From Pseudomonadota bacterium (GTDB taxonomy: Bacteria; Pseudomonadota; Gammaproteobacteria; Steroidobacterales; Steroidobacteraceae), in the NCBI GenBank assembly GCA_021849615.1, contig JAJZSQ010000017.1:1-39475 (forward strand): a DNA stretch of 39,475 nt. Direction: 5' to 3'. The notes beneath the pieces are model-generated. The model worked only from the letters and a program-made list of their open reading frames with translations, was not told the DNA's origin and ran no database searches. How positions within the stretch are numbered: the stretch's first letter is position 1; every line of letters starts with the position of its first letter. Positions 4,115 through 10,004 of this stretch are shown piece after piece. The position numbers and the translations under genes are program-made.

Positions 4115-7100
4115 GTGGTGATCGCGCTCGTCGTACCCACGTTGTACCTTCTGGCTGGCGCGATCGTCGGCGCGATGCTGCACGTTCTGGCGGCTGCGGC
4201 GGCGCGCCGGACGGACCGTTCGGCCCTGCTGGCGTTCGCGGGCATGGCCCTGTTCGCCGCGCTCGCCGCAATCTTCAGCGCCCAGAGCCTGCAGGCCGTG
4301 ACGGTCGCGCAGTTCCTGCGCGCCCTGAAACTGAATCTCGATTGCATCATTGTGGCGACGGGATGCGTCGCGGCATTCGTGGCGCTTTACGTTGGACATC
4401 ATGGGTGGCGGGCGCGTGCACTGCTCGGGGCCTGCGCGGCCGGCTGCGCGGCTCTGATCGTCGCCAACGAGGTGTTGCCGTACGGCATCCAGTATCGGCG
4501 CTTCAGCGGACTCACTGCGCTCAGGCTGCCCTGGGGCGAGACCGTCACGCGCGGCGTCGGCCAGAGCGGACTGCCGGCGTTCCTCGGGGTGCTGCTGCTC
4601 TACGGGGTGATGATTTACGCAACCTGGGCGCTGTGGGGGCACTACCGGCGCACTCGCGAGCCGGGCGCGCGGTGGCTGTTCATCGCCCAGGCGTGTTTCG
4701 TGCCGCTGGCGGTCTTCGGGCTGCTGGTGCGCCTGGCGGTCGTGCACGGCTTCGAGCCTGGACCGCTCGGGTTCCTGCTGGTGGTCGCGGCGATGAGTGC
4801 GACGGTCATGTGGGAGACGCAGCATGCGCTGCGGCTCTCCGAGCAGCGCTTCCGGGTACTGTTCGAGCGTGCCCCGGCGGCGATGGTGGCGATCGACGCG
4901 GCCAGCGGTCGCATCGTGCAGGCGAACGCCGTGGTCTGTGTGCTGAGCGGTTACGAGGCGGGTGAGCTGGTCGGCAAGACGGTCGGGGAGTTGAGCGAGG
5001 CGACCCAGTCGCCGCAGACGTCCGAGCGGTTTGCGGCGCTGCGCGCCGGGACCTGCGAGGAGCAGCGCCTGGAGTGGATTCTGCGCGACAGAAGCGGCGA
5101 GCCGCATGTCACCGATTGCTCAGTGACGGTGCAGCGGGATGCCGGTGGCCGGGTGGCGACACTGATTGCCTGTCTGATCGACGTCACCGAGCGCAAGCGC
5201 ATGGAATCGGCCTTGCGGCGCGAGAGCGGCAAGAACCTTGCGCTGCTGCGCAATTCGAGCGACGGTGTGCACATCCTCACGCCCGAGGGGCACCTGATCG
5301 AGGCGAGCGACTCGTTCTGCGAGATGCTCGGCTACCCGCGCGAGCAGGTGATCGGCATGCACGTGTCGCAGTGGGATGCGCTGTTCACGCCCGAGCAGCT
5401 CGTGGCGATCCTGCATGACCGCTTCGGTGAGCCGCGCCGCACGGTGCTCGAGACCCGGCACCGGCGCCGCGACGGCTCGGTCATCGAGGTCGAAGTCAGC
5501 TCCGTGGCGCTGCGCCTCGGCGACACGCCGGTGCTGTTCAATTCCTCGCGCGACATCACCGCGCGCAAGCACGCCGAGACGCGCCTGCGCGAGAGCGAAA
5601 TACGTCTGCGCACCCTGATCGAGCAGTCGCCCGTCGGCATCTCCTTCAGCCGTGATGGCACCACGATCGATGTCAACGCCCGCTACGCCGAGATGTTCGG
5701 GTACCGCAATGCCGCGGAAGTGCTCGACACCCCGTACCTGGATCGCATCGCACCGCGGGCACGCCCGGCGGTGAGCGAGATCATCGAGCGGCGCCGCGCC
5801 GGCCATGACGCGCCCGCCGAATATGAGACCGTCGGGCTGCGCCGCGATGGCAGCGAGTTCCCGGTGTTCGTCAGCGCACGGCGGATCGTCCTCGAGGACG
5901 GTCCGCTCACCGTGGCCTGCATGCTGGATTTCACCGAACGCAAGCAGTTCGAGGATCGGATCCGCCAGCTGGCCTTCTTCGATCAGCTGACCCGTCTGCC
6001 GAACCGCGAGCTGCTGCAGGATCGGCTGCGTCAGGCGATCTCCGCAAGCGTGCGGACCGACCGTCACGGGGCGCTACTGCTATTCGGACTCGACAACTTC
6101 AAGAGCATCAACGAGACGCTGGGTCACGCCGCCGGCGATGCTCTGCTGCAGCAGGTGGCCACCCGCCTCGCCGGGGAAGTGCGCGACGGTGATACGGTGG
6201 CGCGCATGGGCGGGGACGAGTTCATGGTGCTGCTGGAGGACCTAGGGCCGCAGCCCTGGGCGGCGGCGGCGCATGCCGAATCGTTCGGCCTGAAGATCAT
6301 GCGCATGCTCAGCTCGCCGCAGGGACCCCTGGGCGATCAGGTGCACGTCAGCTGCAGCGTCGGTGCGACGCTGCTGCCGGGGCAGCAGATGGGCGCACAC
6401 GATCTGATCCAGCAGGCCGACATCGCGCTGAACCAGGCCAAGGCGGCCGGGCGCAACACGTTGCGCTTCTTCGACCCGCACATGCAGCAGGTGGTCAGTT
6501 CACGTGCTGCGCTCGAGGGCGAGCTGCGCAAGGCGGTCGGTGCCGGGCAGTTCCTGCTGCACTATCAGCCGCAGGTCGATGCGACCGGGCGGCGCATTGG
6601 TGCCGAGGCGCTGTTGCGCTGGAACCATCCGGTGCGCGGTCTGGTGCCCCCGGGGGAGTACATCGGACTCGCCGAGGAGACGCAGATGATCCTGCCGATC
6701 GGCGAGTGGGTGATCGACACCGCGTGTGCGCAACTGGCGGCCTGGCGCGACGCGCCGGACACCCGGGAGCTGACGCTCGCGGTCAACGTCAGTCCGCTGC
6801 AGTTCCAGCAGCCGCAGTTCGCCGAGCAGGTGCGCCGCGCCATTGGCCGCCACGGCATCGAGGCGCGGCGGCTGAAACTCGAACTGACCGAGACGATGCT
6901 GCAAGGGGACGTGCAGAAGACGGTCATGACCATGCGGCGCCTGAAGGAAGAGGGCGTGCAGTTCTCGCTCGATGACTTCGGGACCGGCTACTCGTCCCTG
7001 CAGTATCTGAAGCAGCTACCGCTCGATCAGCTGAAGATCGATCAGACGTTCGTGCGCGACATCGTGACGGACCCGAACGACCGGGCGATCGTCGCGACCA

Positions 7101-7255
7101 TCATCGCCATCGCCCGCCATCTCGGCCTCGATGTGATCGCCGAGGGCGTCGAGACGCAGGCGCAGCTCGAGGTGCTGCGCGAGTGCGGCTGCAGCCGCTA
7201 CCAGGGCTATCTGTTTGGGCGTCCGGCCGAGGCGCAGCGGCTGTTCGGGACGTGA
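4115..7255 (+). CDS. Membrane PAS-PAS-PAS-GGDEF-EAL cyclic-di-GMP turnover protein
   Basis: The 1046-residue protein begins with about seven predicted membrane helices (residues 1-230), which form a sensor region I cannot assign to a named family. Three PAS domains follow (roughly 240-365, 370-490 and 495-615); the first two end in the typical TERK/TARK junctions and the third in FTERKQ. The GGDEF domain has an intact MGGDEF motif (698-703). The EAL domain has EALLR (831-835), NVSP, ELTE, DDFGTGYSSL, LKIDQTFV and EGVET, so both diguanylate cyclase and phosphodiesterase active sites look complete. The start is GTG 4115, because the ATG at 4110 meets a stop at once. The gene stands alone, convergent with hipA 17 bases away. 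The signal sensed and the net activity are unknown. Confidence 0.9.
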   Translation: MVIALVVPTLYLLAGAIVGAMLHVLAAAAARRTDRSALLAFAGMALFAALAAIFSAQSLQAVTVAQFLRALKLNLDCIIVATGCVAAFVALYVGHHGWRARALLGACAAGCAALIVANEVLPYGIQYRRFSGLTALRLPWGETVTRGVGQSGLPAFLGVLLLYGVMIYATWALWGHYRRTREPGARWLFIAQACFVPLAVFGLLVRLAVVHGFEPGPLGFLLVVAAMSATVMWETQHALRLSEQRFRVLFERAPAAMVAIDAASGRIVQANAVVCVLSGYEAGELVGKTVGELSEATQSPQTSERFAALRAGTCEEQRLEWILRDRSGEPHVTDCSVTVQRDAGGRVATLIACLIDVTERKRMESALRRESGKNLALLRNSSDGVHILTPEGHLIEASDSFCEMLGYPREQVIGMHVSQWDALFTPEQLVAILHDRFGEPRRTVLETRHRRRDGSVIEVEVSSVALRLGDTPVLFNSSRDITARKHAETRLRESEIRLRTLIEQSPVGISFSRDGTTIDVNARYAEMFGYRNAAEVLDTPYLDRIAPRARPAVSEIIERRRAGHDAPAEYETVGLRRDGSEFPVFVSARRIVLEDGPLTVACMLDFTERKQFEDRIRQLAFFDQLTRLPNRELLQDRLRQAISASVRTDRHGALLLFGLDNFKSINETLGHAAGDALLQQVATRLAGEVRDGDTVARMGGDEFMVLLEDLGPQPWAAAAHAESFGLKIMRMLSSPQGPLGDQVHVSCSVGATLLPGQQMGAHDLIQQADIALNQAKAAGRNTLRFFDPHMQQVVSSRAALEGELRKAVGAGQFLLHYQPQVDATGRRIGAEALLRWNHPVRGLVPPGEYIGLAEETQMILPIGEWVIDTACAQLAAWRDAPDTRELTLAVNVSPLQFQQPQFAEQVRRAIGRHGIEARRLKLELTETMLQGDVQKTVMTMRRLKEEGVQFSLDDFGTGYSSLQYLKQLPLDQLKIDQTFVRDIVTDPNDRAIVATIIAIARHLGLDVIAEGVETQAQLEVLRECGCSRYQGYLFGRPAEAQRLFGT

Positions 7256-7272
7256 GCTGCGGACACCGCCGC

Positions 7273-8601
7273 TTACGATCGAGCGGCGGAATCCTTGCGG
7301 GGAAAGTCGAGCCGCAGCGCCGAGCGGATCTGATCGCGCTGCCGGGGCCACACGCCCGCCTGCTCTGCATACCTCGGCCAGCGCTGCACGACCGTGCGCA
7401 CCTCATCGAGCAGAGCTTCAGCACGTCCACGCTTCAGGCCCGCCGTCGCGGCGCAGGTGCGGAAATCCTCCAGGGTGAACCCGTCCCGTTTGCCATTGAT
7501 CGTCATCTGGTGTGAGCCGGTCCAATGCCCCACCGGGTTGTAGGCATAGGTCACGTCGAAGGCCGGGGCGAGTGACCACTCGCCCTGCGGGTTCATCAGG
7601 AACGCGATGTTCTTCACGTGGTCGTCCTGGTTTCGGGCGACGACGTTGAACACCATGCGGCGAAACAGCTGCTCGGTGGCCTGCATCGGCAACTGCAGCC
7701 GCCGGATGACGCCAAAAGCCTGCTCGTAGGAGTGCGCGCCGGCGGCATTGAAGTCCAGATCGGCGAGCGCAGCGAGCGACTGCATGTGCAGCTTGCCGCC
7801 GTCTTCGGTGCGATCGAAGCGGCGGGTCATGAAGTGCCGCCGTCCCCCTTCCTCCAGGATCCGGCATTCAGTCATCTGCAGGCCGGCGTCCCGTGCCATC
7901 AGCCCATAGGCATATTCGATGACGGTGTAGCCCTGGGGATCCTCCAGTTCCTTGTCGCGGTTGCCGCTCACGCCGTCGAACTTCAACAGCCAGTAGCCGA
8001 AGCCTGCCGGCGCGGTGACCTGCCCGGAACGCACCTCGTTGGTCTCGGGGTTCCAGGCGATGATGGCCTTGGCACGAGCACCGCCCGCCGAGGTTCCGAC
8101 CCGCAGCAGATCCTGGAGCGCACCGTTGCGCCGTGCGGCGGTAAACGAGTCGTGCAGTGCGCTGCGGCGCTCGAGGATGTCGGCGGCAAGTTCAACCAGA
8201 GCGTCGACGCGGATCGTGCTCGTGCGTCGATGCCGCGGACCGGTCACCGGGGCGAACTCCAGCGCGCCCATGCCGCGCGTACCGATGTAACAGAGGCGCT
8301 CGATGGCGTTGAACGTCTCGGGTGAGCGGCCTTGTGTGGCAAGCCAGGCGTTGATCAGTGCGGTGCCGAATTTGTCGGGCAACGAGTCGGCCAGCAGTCC
8401 CGGCAGGCCGTGGAAGGAGATCCGTGGGAGCGACGGGAACGTGTAGATGCGCGAGGCGAGCGGCATGCTGAGCGGGGCGACTTCGATCCTGCTGCGCGCG
8501 AAATGCGGATCGTACTGAAATGCCGCGACGTCGCGTCCCTCATCCAGGGAGACTGCGGCGATGCGCCGCCCCCAGAGTCTCACCTCGGCCGTCGTGCTCA
8601 T
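7273..8601 (-). CDS. hipA: HipA-family serine/threonine kinase toxin
   Basis: This 442-residue protein belongs to the HipA kinase family; E. coli HipA phosphorylates glutamyl-tRNA synthetase and causes growth arrest. The sequence shows a Gly-rich loop (GTSAGGARAK, 169-178), the catalytic NQDDHVKN segment (324-331; Asp326 and Asn331 match E. coli HipA Asp309 and Asn314) and a metal-binding Asp in APAFDVTY (Asp349). All key kinase residues are therefore present. The start at 8601 overlaps the hipB stop in an ATGA, which indicates translational coupling. A longer open frame reaches 8655 but runs into the hipB coding region. Whether the target is the same as in E. coli cannot be told. Confidence 0.88.
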   Translation of the reverse strand: MSTTAEVRLWGRRIAAVSLDEGRDVAAFQYDPHFARSRIEVAPLSMPLASRIYTFPSLPRISFHGLPGLLADSLPDKFGTALINAWLATQGRSPETFNAIERLCYIGTRGMGALEFAPVTGPRHRRTSTIRVDALVELAADILERRSALHDSFTAARRNGALQDLLRVGTSAGGARAKAIIAWNPETNEVRSGQVTAPAGFGYWLLKFDGVSGNRDKELEDPQGYTVIEYAYGLMARDAGLQMTECRILEEGGRRHFMTRRFDRTEDGGKLHMQSLAALADLDFNAAGAHSYEQAFGVIRRLQLPMQATEQLFRRMVFNVVARNQDDHVKNIAFLMNPQGEWSLAPAFDVTYAYNPVGHWTGSHQMTINGKRDGFTLEDFRTCAATAGLKRGRAEALLDEVRTVVQRWPRYAEQAGVWPRQRDQIRSALRLDFPRKDSAARS

Positions 8602-9023
8602 GCGCGGGGCTTGCCCTTCGCGGTGTCGGGCCGTTGTGCGGTGGGGGGATCCCACGTCCAGGGCTTCGCCGCGGCGGCATGGCCCGAAGACCCCGTGGGC
8701 TCGGCATCCTCCGCCGTTGCACGGGCGTGAGTCACGCGCTGGCGCTGTTTGCCCCGCAACTTCAGCTGCGCGATCGGACTCACCGGCAGTTCCGGGATCA
8801 GTCGATCGAGCCCTTCGATCAGCTGCAACACGCGCAGCACGCGGATGAAGGTGAGCAGCTCCGTGCCCTGTCCTCTCTCGATCCGCTCCAGGGTGCGCTT
8901 GCCGATGCCGGCCTGTTCGGCGAGCTCGGCCTGGGTGAGGTTTGCCGCGATGCGATGCTGCTCGATGCGCTGGCCCAGCGTCAGCAGGGCAGCGGGATCG
9001 GTCAGATCAGAATAGACTTTCAT
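8598..9023 (-). CDS. hipB: HipB-family antitoxin / XRE-type repressor
   Basis: The 141-residue protein has an N-terminal XRE helix-turn-helix (LGQRIEQHRIAANLTQAELA followed by EQAGIGKRTLERIERGQ, about 17-53). It is expected to bind HipA and repress the hipBA promoter. ATG 9023 is preferred; an upstream TTG at 9059 would add twelve residues, and neither has a strong Shine-Dalgarno sequence. About 60 residues after the folded part are rich in Ala, Pro, Thr and Lys and look disordered. Antitoxins often have such a protease-sensitive tail, but this one is long for the family (E. coli HipB is 88 residues). The stop overlaps the hipA start. Confidence 0.85.
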   Translation of the reverse strand: MKVYSDLTDPAALLTLGQRIEQHRIAANLTQAELAEQAGIGKRTLERIERGQGTELLTFIRVLRVLQLIEGLDRLIPELPVSPIAQLKLRGKQRQRVTHARATAEDAEPTGSSGHAAAAKPWTWDPPTAQRPDTAKGKPRA

Positions 9024-9065
9024 AAATCGCCGTAAATTGCGAGTAATGTTGGAATTCAATTAGGA

Positions 9066-9168
9066 CTCGTTATACATGGCGAATTATACGCTAAAAAAAG
9101 ATATGTGTAATTCGTTATATATGGCGAATTAAACAGATAATTCGTTTCTATTCGTCATTATTGACGAA
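9066..9168. promoter_or_regulatory. Array of three TTCG-N10-CGAA operators at hipBA
   Basis: Three dyads share the form TTCG-N10-CGAA: 9066-9083 (left arm CTCG), 9111-9128 and 9151-9168. The first two are near-identical over 19 bases (9068-9086 and 9113-9131, one mismatch). The third sits inside a perfect 10-bp inverted repeat (arms 9148-9157 and 9162-9171, loop TTAT). Centres are 45 and 40 bases apart, close to four helical turns, so bound dimers would lie on nearly one face. Site 1 overlaps the transcription start and site 2 touches the -35. HipB is the obvious ligand. The stretch 9172-9257 holds nothing recognisable. Confidence 0.7.
9083..9111 (-). promoter_or_regulatory. Promoter of hipBA
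   Basis: On the minus strand a perfect TATAAT (9088-9083) lies 17 bases downstream of ATTACA (9111-9106). Transcription would begin near 9076, leaving a leader of about 53 bases before hipB. The hexamers are bracketed by two copies of the dyad listed separately. Confidence 0.65.
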
Positions 9169-9257
9169 TAGAGGCATACATGGTTGGGGCAGGAAGCCTG
9201 GCCTTCAGCCTCGCCCGAGAGGCTGCCCTCGACCCGGATTGGTCCCCTGGGGCCGGC

Positions 9258-10004
9258 TCAGATCTCGATGCGCGAAAACCGCCAGGCGCCGACGAGGGTC
9301 AGGACGACGGCGAGGCCGCCCATGACCACGAGGTCGAGCAGGCTGGTGAAATGCCCGCGCGCGATCAGCGCGCCGCGCAGCCCGTCGACCCCGTAGGTCA
9401 GCGGATCAATCCGGGTGAGGGCGGCGAGCAGCACCGGCAGGTGCTCGAGCGGATAGAGCGCACCGGAGAGGAAGAAGATGGGCATGACGAGGAAGTTCAT
9501 CACCATCTGGAAGCCCTGCATGTCGCGCAGAGTCGAGCCGACGGTGGTGCCGACGGCGGTGAACACCACCGCAATCAGCGCCAGGAACGCCAACCCGAGT
9601 GGCAATCCACCGACGCCCACGGGACGAAAGCCGGCCGCGACCGCCACGGCCGCGACCAGCAGTCCCTGGATCAGCGCGGTGGTGGCAGCCCCGCAGGTGC
9701 GCCCGATCATGATGTGCAGCCGCGGCACGGGTGCGACCAGCGTCTCCTTCAGGAAGCCGAACTGCCGGTCCCAGATCAGCTGGATGCCGGAGAACAGCGA
9801 GGAGAAGAGCACCGTCATCGCAATCACGCCCGGGGCGACGAACTGCAGGTAGTTGCCTTCGCCGCCGCGGCGGAACACCGGGGAGAGGCCGTAGCCGAGG
9901 GCCAGCAGGTACAGCAGCGGCTGGCCGAGCGAGGCCGCAATCTGCGCCCGGGAGCGGAAGTAGCGCTTCAGTTCACGCAGCCACAACACATAGATCGCGC
10001 CCAT
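9258..10004 (-). CDS. ABC-2 type exporter permease
   Basis: The 248-residue membrane protein has about six hydrophobic segments and fits the ABC-2 (DrrB/NodJ-like) permease family. A conserved stretch is MPIFFLSGALYPLEHLP, followed by DPLTYGVDGLRG. It pairs with the ATPase gene ten bases upstream and is translated from a good Shine-Dalgarno sequence (GAGGAG, seven bases before ATG). Together they would form an exporter for a drug, lipid or polysaccharide; the substrate cannot be inferred. Confidence 0.88.
   Translation of the reverse strand: MGAIYVLWLRELKRYFRSRAQIAASLGQPLLYLLALGYGLSPVFRRGGEGNYLQFVAPGVIAMTVLFSSLFSGIQLIWDRQFGFLKETLVAPVPRLHIMIGRTCGAATTALIQGLLVAAVAVAAGFRPVGVGGLPLGLAFLALIAVVFTAVGTTVGSTLRDMQGFQMVMNFLVMPIFFLSGALYPLEHLPVLLAALTRIDPLTYGVDGLRGALIARGHFTSLLDLVVMGGLAVVLTLVGAWRFSRIEI

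What the first reader, a model, noticed from the sequence alone, without database searches (positions are those of the whole stretch)
9066..9168. Three phased TTCG-N10-CGAA dyads cover the hipBA promoter
The dyads are centred 45 and 40 bases apart. Two of them overlap the transcription start and the -35 of an ATTACA-N17-TATAAT promoter, and the third lies upstream. This is a clear operator array with a sequence unlike the TATCC-N8-GGATA box of E. coli HipB. It offers a defined binding rule for this HipB branch, and the phasing suggests DNA bending or cooperative higher-order HipBA complexes.
Basis: partly seen in the sequence, partly recalled or inferred. Interest (0 to 1): 0.5.

Follow-up and report, generated by a model that had tools for sequence, protein, structure and literature searches.

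The report
Paired operators of a hipBA promoter
The control region of a bacterial toxin-antitoxin operon carries four copies of what looks like its repressor's binding site, laid out as two pairs exactly 40 bases apart, and relatives in several bacterial phyla keep this 40-41 base distance even where the letters of the site have changed, which points to a fixed shape of the repressor-toxin complex on DNA.

Summary
The dyads are real, but there are four, not three: centres 9034.5, 9074.5, 9119.5, 9159.5 (40-45-40).

A motif-free repeat test on those 80 still peaks at 41 bp, and again in 18 plasmid loci and 18 loci of a distant HipA group. E. coli-type loci peak at 27/28 bp (K-12: 28-39-28).

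So operator letters change while the 40-41 bp pair distance stays. Best reading: a HipB(A) autorepression array whose unit is a pair of operators held at that distance by neighbouring HipB2A2 complexes touching. Binding, cooperativity and contact are inferred; bending was not tested. Multi-operator hipBA autoregulation is known; the sequence, the spacing and its constancy are a new variant.

The parts
9025..9044 (.).
   Evidence: matrix score 26.4 bits at centre -11.5; a box centred 8-13 bp before the reference start in 46 of 60 KRTxER loci
9065..9084 (.). Operator O2 (ATTCGCCATGTATAACGAGT on the - strand); overlaps the -10 by two bases and the expected transcription start
   Evidence: 20.6 bits
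9110..9129 (.). Operator O3; overlaps the -35 hexamer by two bases
   Evidence: core is an exact TTCG-N10-CGAA; 27.4 bits
9150..9169 (.). Operator O4: perfect 8-bp arms ATTCGTCA/TGACGAAT around a 4-base centre, upstream of the promoter
   Evidence: core is an exact TTCG-N10-CGAA; 26.2 bits
9083..9111 (-). sigma70-type promoter, ATTACA (9111-9106), 17 bp, TATAAT (9088-9083)
   Evidence: in 14 relatives with exact 40/46/40 geometry a TATA block abuts O2 and a weaker TTG block abuts O3
8598..9023 (-). hipB, 141-aa XRE-type antitoxin/repressor; predicted recognition helix residues 42-49 KRTLERIE
   Evidence: HTH_31/HTH_3 above cut-off; couple_hipB TIGR03070 matched below its cut-off (39.3 of 71.65 bits); predicted fold, Foldseek hits to 4ghj and HipB structures
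7273..8601 (-). hipA, 442-aa HipA-family protein (kinase-type toxin by family), start overlaps the hipB stop (ATGA)
   Evidence: HipA_C and Couple_hipA above gathering score

Best explanation
The four dyads are operators through which HipB, alone or as HipB2A2, represses its own hipBA promoter. O2 and O3 bracket the core promoter (-10 at O2, -35 at O3); O1 lies in the leader next to the start codon and O4 upstream. The functional unit is a pair of operators 40-41 bp apart (O1-O2 and O3-O4): one HipB dimer with its two HipA sits on each, and the two complexes of a pair touch through HipA (or HipB), which makes repression cooperative and sensitive to the HipA:HipB ratio. Because the distance is set by the shape of the complex and the letters by the HipB recognition helix, the letters drift (TCGYC here, other palindromes elsewhere) while 40-41 bp is kept. 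Shown here: sites, spacing, conservation, helix association, promoter-like layout. Inferred: binding, repression, contact between neighbouring complexes, cooperativity.
For: Four sites in the window, 40-45-40. 88 upstream regions: 163 sites against 2.2 in dinucleotide shuffles (30 of the 88 supplied or were scanned for the training sites). 140 hipA-linked loci: KRTxER helix 59 of 60 with >=2 sites, other helices 0 of 80 (five have one); outside training 31 of 31 and 0 of 80. Of 134 successive distances 74 are 40 and 12 are 41; of the other 48, 35 are 42-47. In 14 loci with identical geometry the sites are 60% identical and the spacers 39% (box columns were picked by the matrix, which favours them). 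Motif-free repeat test: lag 40 in KRTxER loci, lag 41 in the 80 others; a test on dyad symmetry alone gives the same lags. Among 47 of these with HipB below 60% identity to each other, 40 or 41 is the best lag of 24-60 in 27.4 (ties split), about 2.5 expected; repeats match within a locus at 12.55/18, between loci at 8.58/18, so this is not shared flanking sequence. Replication: 18 plasmid loci, lag 41 first, 14 of 18 individually at p<=0.05; 18 loci of a distant HipA group, lag 41 first, outright best in 9 and tied in 2. E. coli-type loci: 27/28 instead.
Against: No binding or expression data. The 21 KRTxER loci sampled for the tree form one HipA group (SH-aLRT 94, quick tree), so 59/60 against 0/80 is close to one evolutionary event, not 140 independent ones. 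The lag z-values are inflated by shared ancestry: inside hipA coding sequence unrelated lags reach z 10.2, and 9 of 59 KRTxER loci exceed their own shuffle at 40/41 there. 19 of 47 diverged non-KRT loci do not exceed their own 95% shuffle at 40/41. In the most distant non-KRT bin (HipA <46%, 16 loci) lag 41 (z 4.1) barely leads lag 52 (z 4.0). Locus L091 has the KRTxER helix and no box. L042 and L044 have two boxes but no HipA match. The palindromes of the other helix classes come from a fit that imposes 40/41, cover 56 of the 80 loci, and fit some members badly (L142, L187, L109, L115, L124). A first dyad test was nearly blind. That HipA supplies the contact is analogy with E. coli.
Confidence: 0.75

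Rival explanations
1. HipB binds the four boxes independently; the 40-41 bp distance is kept by promoter layout (one box at the leader, one at the transcription start, and so on), not by contacts between complexes.
For: O2 and O3 sit at fixed places relative to -10 and -35 in 14 loci; for Legionella HipBST, with three evenly spaced operators, the authors consider intermediate occupancy possible, in contrast to E. coli cooperativity (PMC10653801, passages).
Against: O3-O4 lies upstream of the core promoter and keeps 40-41 bp as strictly as O1-O2, whereas the promoter-spanning O2-O3 distance is the one that varies (26-47). 15 of 60 KRTxER loci have just two boxes, in 14 of them one pair at 40-41.
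Confidence: 0.2
2. The dyads are RNA structures in the hipBA leader (hairpins) rather than DNA operators.
For: O1 and part of O2 would be transcribed and are inverted repeats.
Against: O3 and O4 lie upstream of the predicted start and have the same consensus and spacing; no terminator-like site was found in 8800-9400; box letters go with the HipB recognition helix. No RNA folding was run.
Confidence: 0.03
3. The boxes belong to another regulator (host XRE or global factor) that also controls hipBA.
For: Binding by HipB itself was not tested.
Against: The boxes travel with hipBA across genera and phyla and differ where the HipB helix differs. In the 3.19-Mb own genome a tight pattern matches 9 places (3 for the reversed control), but it finds only O4 of the four window boxes, so this is a weak test for other targets.
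Confidence: 0.03

Closest known systems
E. coli K-12 hipBA operators (TATCC-N8-GGATA, four sites)
   Same: hipB-hipA operon; four palindromic operators as two pairs with equal spacing inside the pairs (28-39-28 in K-12, measured; 40-45-40 here); a TATAAT next to an operator (by eye); HipB of XRE fold.
   Different: Letters (TATCC against TCGYC); spacing inside a pair (27/28 in the 29 E. coli-type loci as a group, against 40/41); the promoter lies between the two pairs here; HipA on the other side of a branch with SH-aLRT 100 in the quick tree.
Legionella HipBST operators (PMC10653801, passages read)
   Same: HipB-type repressor with several conserved operators at larger distances than in E. 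coli.
   Different: Three operators with 53-bp gaps, six-letter repeats, tripartite system with split HipA.
Caulobacter crescentus hipBA1/hipBA2 (PMC7029023, passages read)
   Same: Series of identical inverted repeats upstream of hipBA.
   Different: Described there as spaced consistently with the E. coli complex; clade I by PMC8262856 (section 5).
PDB 4ghj (Vibrio vulnificus regulator) and 9u9g (HipB of P. fluorescens 2P24)
   Same: Closest solved folds to this HipB.
   Different: I know of no operator or spacing for them; a library search for HipB with this strain found 0 papers.

Membership tests
hipBA type II toxin-antitoxin module | HTH antitoxin gene directly upstream of and overlapping or adjoining a HipA-family gene | tested here: met
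   hipB 8598-9023, hipA 7273-8601, ATGA overlap; HipA_C and Couple_hipA above cut-off
hipBA type II toxin-antitoxin module | HipA is a toxic kinase neutralised by HipB | not testable with these tools
   residues G169-A172, D326-H328, K330, N331 and D349 (loop and kinase-type motifs, labels recalled) are invariant in 31 aligned HipAs; activity not tested
hipBA type II toxin-antitoxin module | HipB represses its own promoter at palindromic operators | tested here: inconclusive
   operators present, conserved and associated with the HipB helix; binding not tested
E. coli-type HipBA (taken as clade I of PMC8262856) | TATCC-N8-GGATA operators | tested here: not met
   boxes are TCGYC-N6-GRCGA
E. 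coli-type HipBA (taken as clade I of PMC8262856) | 27/28-bp spacing inside operator pairs | tested here: not met
   40 bp in the window, 40/41 in relatives; E. coli-type 27/28
E. coli-type HipBA (taken as clade I of PMC8262856) | HipA groups with E. coli HipA | tested here: not met
   opposite sides of a branch with SH-aLRT 100, quick tree of 89 sampled HipAs; phmmer to E. coli HipA only E 1.2e-4. The published clade number of this branch was not determined
E. coli-type HipBA (taken as clade I of PMC8262856) | four operators in two pairs of equal spacing, as in K-12 | tested here: met
   40-45-40 against 28-39-28

The most novel reading that the evidence does not exclude
In HipBA toxin-antitoxin systems the distance inside an operator pair is a ruler set by the toxin-antitoxin complex: 40-41 bp in a large branch spread over several phyla, 27-28 bp in the E. 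coli branch. Operator letters turn over with the HipB recognition helix while the ruler is frozen, so neighbouring HipB2A2 complexes must touch on DNA, in a geometry different from the one known for E. coli.
Probability: 0.6. Interest if true: 0.65.

Novelty: new variant of a known kind. Interest (0 to 1): 0.55.

Why it matters
The E. coli picture, in which neighbouring HipBA complexes meet on paired operators and the hipA7 change is thought to disturb HipA dimerisation there (PMC7029023, passage), rests on one clade; PMC8262856 (section 5) says that the characterised hipBA modules from E. coli and Caulobacter are all clade I. A constant 40-41 bp pair in another branch, with letters that change, predicts a second geometry of toxin-antitoxin assembly on DNA that can be tested by changing the distance by 5 bp. 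The pairing of helix and operator (KRTxER with TCGYC, others provisional) gives a starting data set for how XRE repressors change specificity, and the spacing gives a way to find operators upstream of unstudied hipBA operons.

Tried and rejected
Chance: the bare pattern alone is not convincing in one window, and TTCG-N10-CGAA occurs at 104 places in the own genome (reversed control 21); the comparative data carry the case. Helical phasing of the distance between pairs: values 26, 27, 35, 36, 38, 42-47 looked like steps of about 10 bp at first, but 42-47 is filled in and two of the short values (L038, L041) rest on weak boxes (9.5 and 11.8 bits); not claimed. Dyad symmetry by maximising over 21 centres: nearly blind (40/41 at 4.57/4.51 against 4.43, sd 0.05); replaced by a joint-dyad lag test, which for the E. 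coli-type set leads only narrowly (27: z 7.9, 28: 7.3, 57: 7.0). Extra regulon: 9 hits genome-wide with a tight pattern, control 3; the pattern misses three of the four window boxes; not followed further. A regular expression for HTH proteins accepted just 30 of 144 candidate antitoxins and was replaced by a profile. Careful tree not finished; the quick tree is used. The HipA model was not used. Literature searches bearing on HipB operators or spacing: (open-licence library only; Schumacher 2015 and Wen 2014 are not held and were not read; other papers in the listings were seen as listings only).

Rows dropped: one search dropped L001, L035 and L036 (copy of the window's locus, truncated, copy of L006). 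For some searches, L001-L004, L035, L036, L126, L133 and L174 were left out beforehand (duplicates, truncated, or other HipA groups); of the 183 loci offered 147 had a HipA match; L042, L044, L054, L092 and L108 were among those without one, and the two of them with two boxes (L042, L044) are therefore not in the 60. Five of the 147 gave no antitoxin ORF (L162, L186, L173, L190, L027), L103 lacked the reference column and L161 had no upstream, leaving 140. L125, the own-genome paralogue, stayed among the 80. E. coli-type set: L221 and L222 gave no usable antitoxin; L220's chosen ORF is probably not hipB but was kept among the 29. Tree: a random sample, 21 KRTxER, 39 other, 29 E. coli-type. Plasmids: 18 of 64 records fetched, chosen by hand for variety.

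Full report
WHAT IS THERE. On the minus strand of the window hipB (8598-9023, 141 aa) and hipA (7273-8601, 442 aa) overlap by ATGA. HipA has both HipA Pfam domains above cut-off; HipB is a XRE-type HTH protein. Upstream lie four dyads, not three, with centres 9034.5, 9074.5, 9119.5 and 9159.5 and spacing 40-45-40. Two are exact TTCG-N10-CGAA, one is CTCG...CGAA, and the unreported one, ATCG...CGAG, lies directly before the hipB start codon. The promoter ATTACA-N17-TATAAT sits between the second and third.

THE REAL CONSENSUS. From 85 sites in 30 loci (the window's included) the palindromic matrix reads WAnTCGYC-N6-GRCGAnTW. The seed sites were chosen by TCG-N10-CGA, so those letters are fixed by construction.

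HOMOLOGUES. HipB was sought in 396 genomes of the order (82 with a match) and in the species-genome contigs (51 loci); HipA in 369 genomes of the class (50 with a match) and 398 of the phylum (19; the sets share some genomes). In 88 upstream regions the matrix finds 163 sites, 2.2 expected from shuffles. In the larger set of 140 hipA-linked loci, those with recognition helix KRTxER (60, the window's included) have at least two boxes in 59 cases (31 with four, 13 with three, 15 with two), and those with other helices in 0 of 80 (five have one). Outside the training loci the figures are 31 of 31 and 0 of 80. Contigs with at least two boxes include Planctomycetota (L041, L042), Kiritimatiellales (L051), Acidobacteriota (L046) and Myxococcota (L039) besides Gammaproteobacteria; these are metagenome-assembled, so contig assignment rests on the record titles. 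The exception, L091, has a G+C-rich upstream without any box. The KRTxER loci sampled form one group in the quick HipA tree (SH-aLRT 94), so this association is strong but rests on few evolutionary events.

SPACING. Of 134 successive distances between boxes 74 are 40 and 12 are 41; the other 48 include 35 of 42-47 (46 alone 25 times), 26, 27, 35, 36 and 38, a few very short ones with weak boxes (19, 21) and two of 85/86 where an inner box is not found. In 14 loci with exactly 40/46/40 the boxes are 60% identical and the spacers 39%; apart from the boxes a TATA block against O2 and a weaker TTG against O3 stand out. So the promoter is bracketed by the inner boxes and the pair is the fixed unit; 14 of the 15 two-box loci are one such pair.

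THE SPACING OUTLIVES THE LETTERS. A test without any motif asks at which distance a stretch of 18 bases upstream of hipB best repeats itself. KRTxER loci peak at 40; the 80 others peak at 41, in all three bins of HipA identity, in the most distant bin only just (z 4.1, lag 52 at 4.0). A test on dyad symmetry alone gives the same lags. z-values must not be read as probabilities: inside hipA, shared coding sequence gives z up to 10.2 at unrelated lags; there 3 of 80 (other helices) and 9 of 59 (KRTxER) loci exceed their own 95% shuffle at 40/41, and 240-420 bp upstream of hipB 6 of 136. Upstream of hipB it is 28 of 47 diverged non-KRT loci and 19 of 19 diverged KRTxER loci. The cleaner count is: among the 47 non-KRT loci with HipB below 60% identity to each other, 41 is the best lag between 24 and 60 in 16.4 and 40 in 11.0 (ties split; 1.27 expected per lag). 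The repeats match within a locus at 12.55/18 but between loci at 8.58/18; 24 of 47 reach 13/18, against 2 of 136 in the upstream control. A fit with the distance held at 40/41 gives different palindromes for different helix classes (eight classes, 56 of the 80 loci), for example wwTGmGy for RRTxTR (8 loci), wATGnrknA, individually TGCGTCA, for RSTxTR (6), wAyAGnC for LN/LG..K[AS] (16), GCTTr for VTAIKG (4) and ATCAy for VATLRR (4). These are provisional, and some members fit badly.

REPLICATION AND CONTRAST. Eighteen plasmid loci chosen by hand from 64 records peak at 41, then 40, with nothing at 27/28; 14 of 18 reach p<=0.05 against 200 of their own shuffles. The 14 are Alpha-, Beta- and Gammaproteobacteria, Bacteroidota and Bacillota; the Actinomycetota (0.15) and Campylobacterota (0.12) loci, one Hymenobacter (0.36) and the Vibrio (0.07) do not reach it. 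Eighteen loci of the group of the own genome's second HipA also peak at 41, outright best in 9 and tied in 2, though not in the own-genome copy itself. E. coli-type HipA loci (32 of 369 genomes; 29 usable with K-12) peak at 27, with 54, 56 and 28 next and nothing at 40/41. K-12 itself has its four TATCC-N8-GGATA boxes at 28-39-28. The E. coli-type HipAs and those of the 40/41 set lie on opposite sides of a branch with SH-aLRT 100 in the quick tree; the second-HipA group is represented there only by L125, on a long branch.

HOW IT MOST LIKELY WORKS. HipB reads the box with helix 42-49 (KRTLERIE in the predicted fold, mean pLDDT 82.5; closest solved folds 4ghj and HipB structures). HipB2A2 on O2 and O3 would block RNA polymerase at the start and at -35; O1 and O4 are the partners of O2 and O3. 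That the partner distance is constant while the promoter-spanning distance and the letters vary is best explained by contact between the two complexes of a pair. In E. coli, HipA dimerisation within HipA/HipB/operator complexes is described in the literature (passage in PMC7029023; the original structure paper is not held and was not read). Here binding, repression and contact are inferred.

WHAT IS KNOWN. E. coli: four operators, cooperative binding, 70 degree bend (PMC3920265, passage). Legionella HipBST: three operators with 53-bp gaps (PMC10653801, passages). Caulobacter: repeats at E. coli-like intervals (PMC7029023, passage). PMC8262856 (passages and section 5): the characterised E. coli and Caulobacter modules are all in clade I; hipBA also fills clades II and IV-VIII. 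I found no description of a 40-41 bp pair in the searches listed; the library holds open-licence papers only.

VERDICT. A real, conserved operator-like array, better than described; the kind is known, the sequence and above all the kept 40-41 bp distance are a new variant, and they make a direct prediction about how these complexes assemble on DNA.

Noticed in passing
window 8598-9023 and relatives (alignment A1): HipB of this branch ends in a variable tail with a nearly invariant tryptophan (W124 here, W-x-W in many); E. coli HipB also ends in a tryptophan. It may be the part that enters HipA.
   Followed up: no
L126 and L193-L220: E. coli-type hipBA promoters repeat at 27/28 and again at 54/56 bp, so three evenly spaced operators may be common there, although K-12 itself has 28-39-28.
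   Followed up: partly
window 9025-9044: O1 ends one base before the hipB ATG and occupies the place of a Shine-Dalgarno sequence; 46 of 60 KRTxER loci have a box centred 8-13 bp before the reference start, so HipB binding or the box itself may matter for translation start.
   Followed up: no
L091: A relative with the KRTxER helix and a 65% identical HipA but a G+C-rich upstream without any box: promoter lost, replaced or misassembled.
   Followed up: no
L042, L044: Two HipB relatives with two boxes each but no HipA match in the locus held: solitary antitoxin, another partner, or a HipA too distant to see.
   Followed up: no
G000:C217:1160-2404 and G000:C52:2992-4143: The own genome has two further longer HipA homologues (and a short match on C4); the C52 stretch has an in-frame stop, the C217 copy has an HTH gene upstream but no 41-bp repeat although its group has one.
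   Followed up: partly
window 7255-7273: hipA ends 17 bp from the end of a convergent 1046-aa ORF (4115-7255, +) that looks like a PAS-GGDEF-EAL protein by eye; no terminator search was made there.
   Followed up: no
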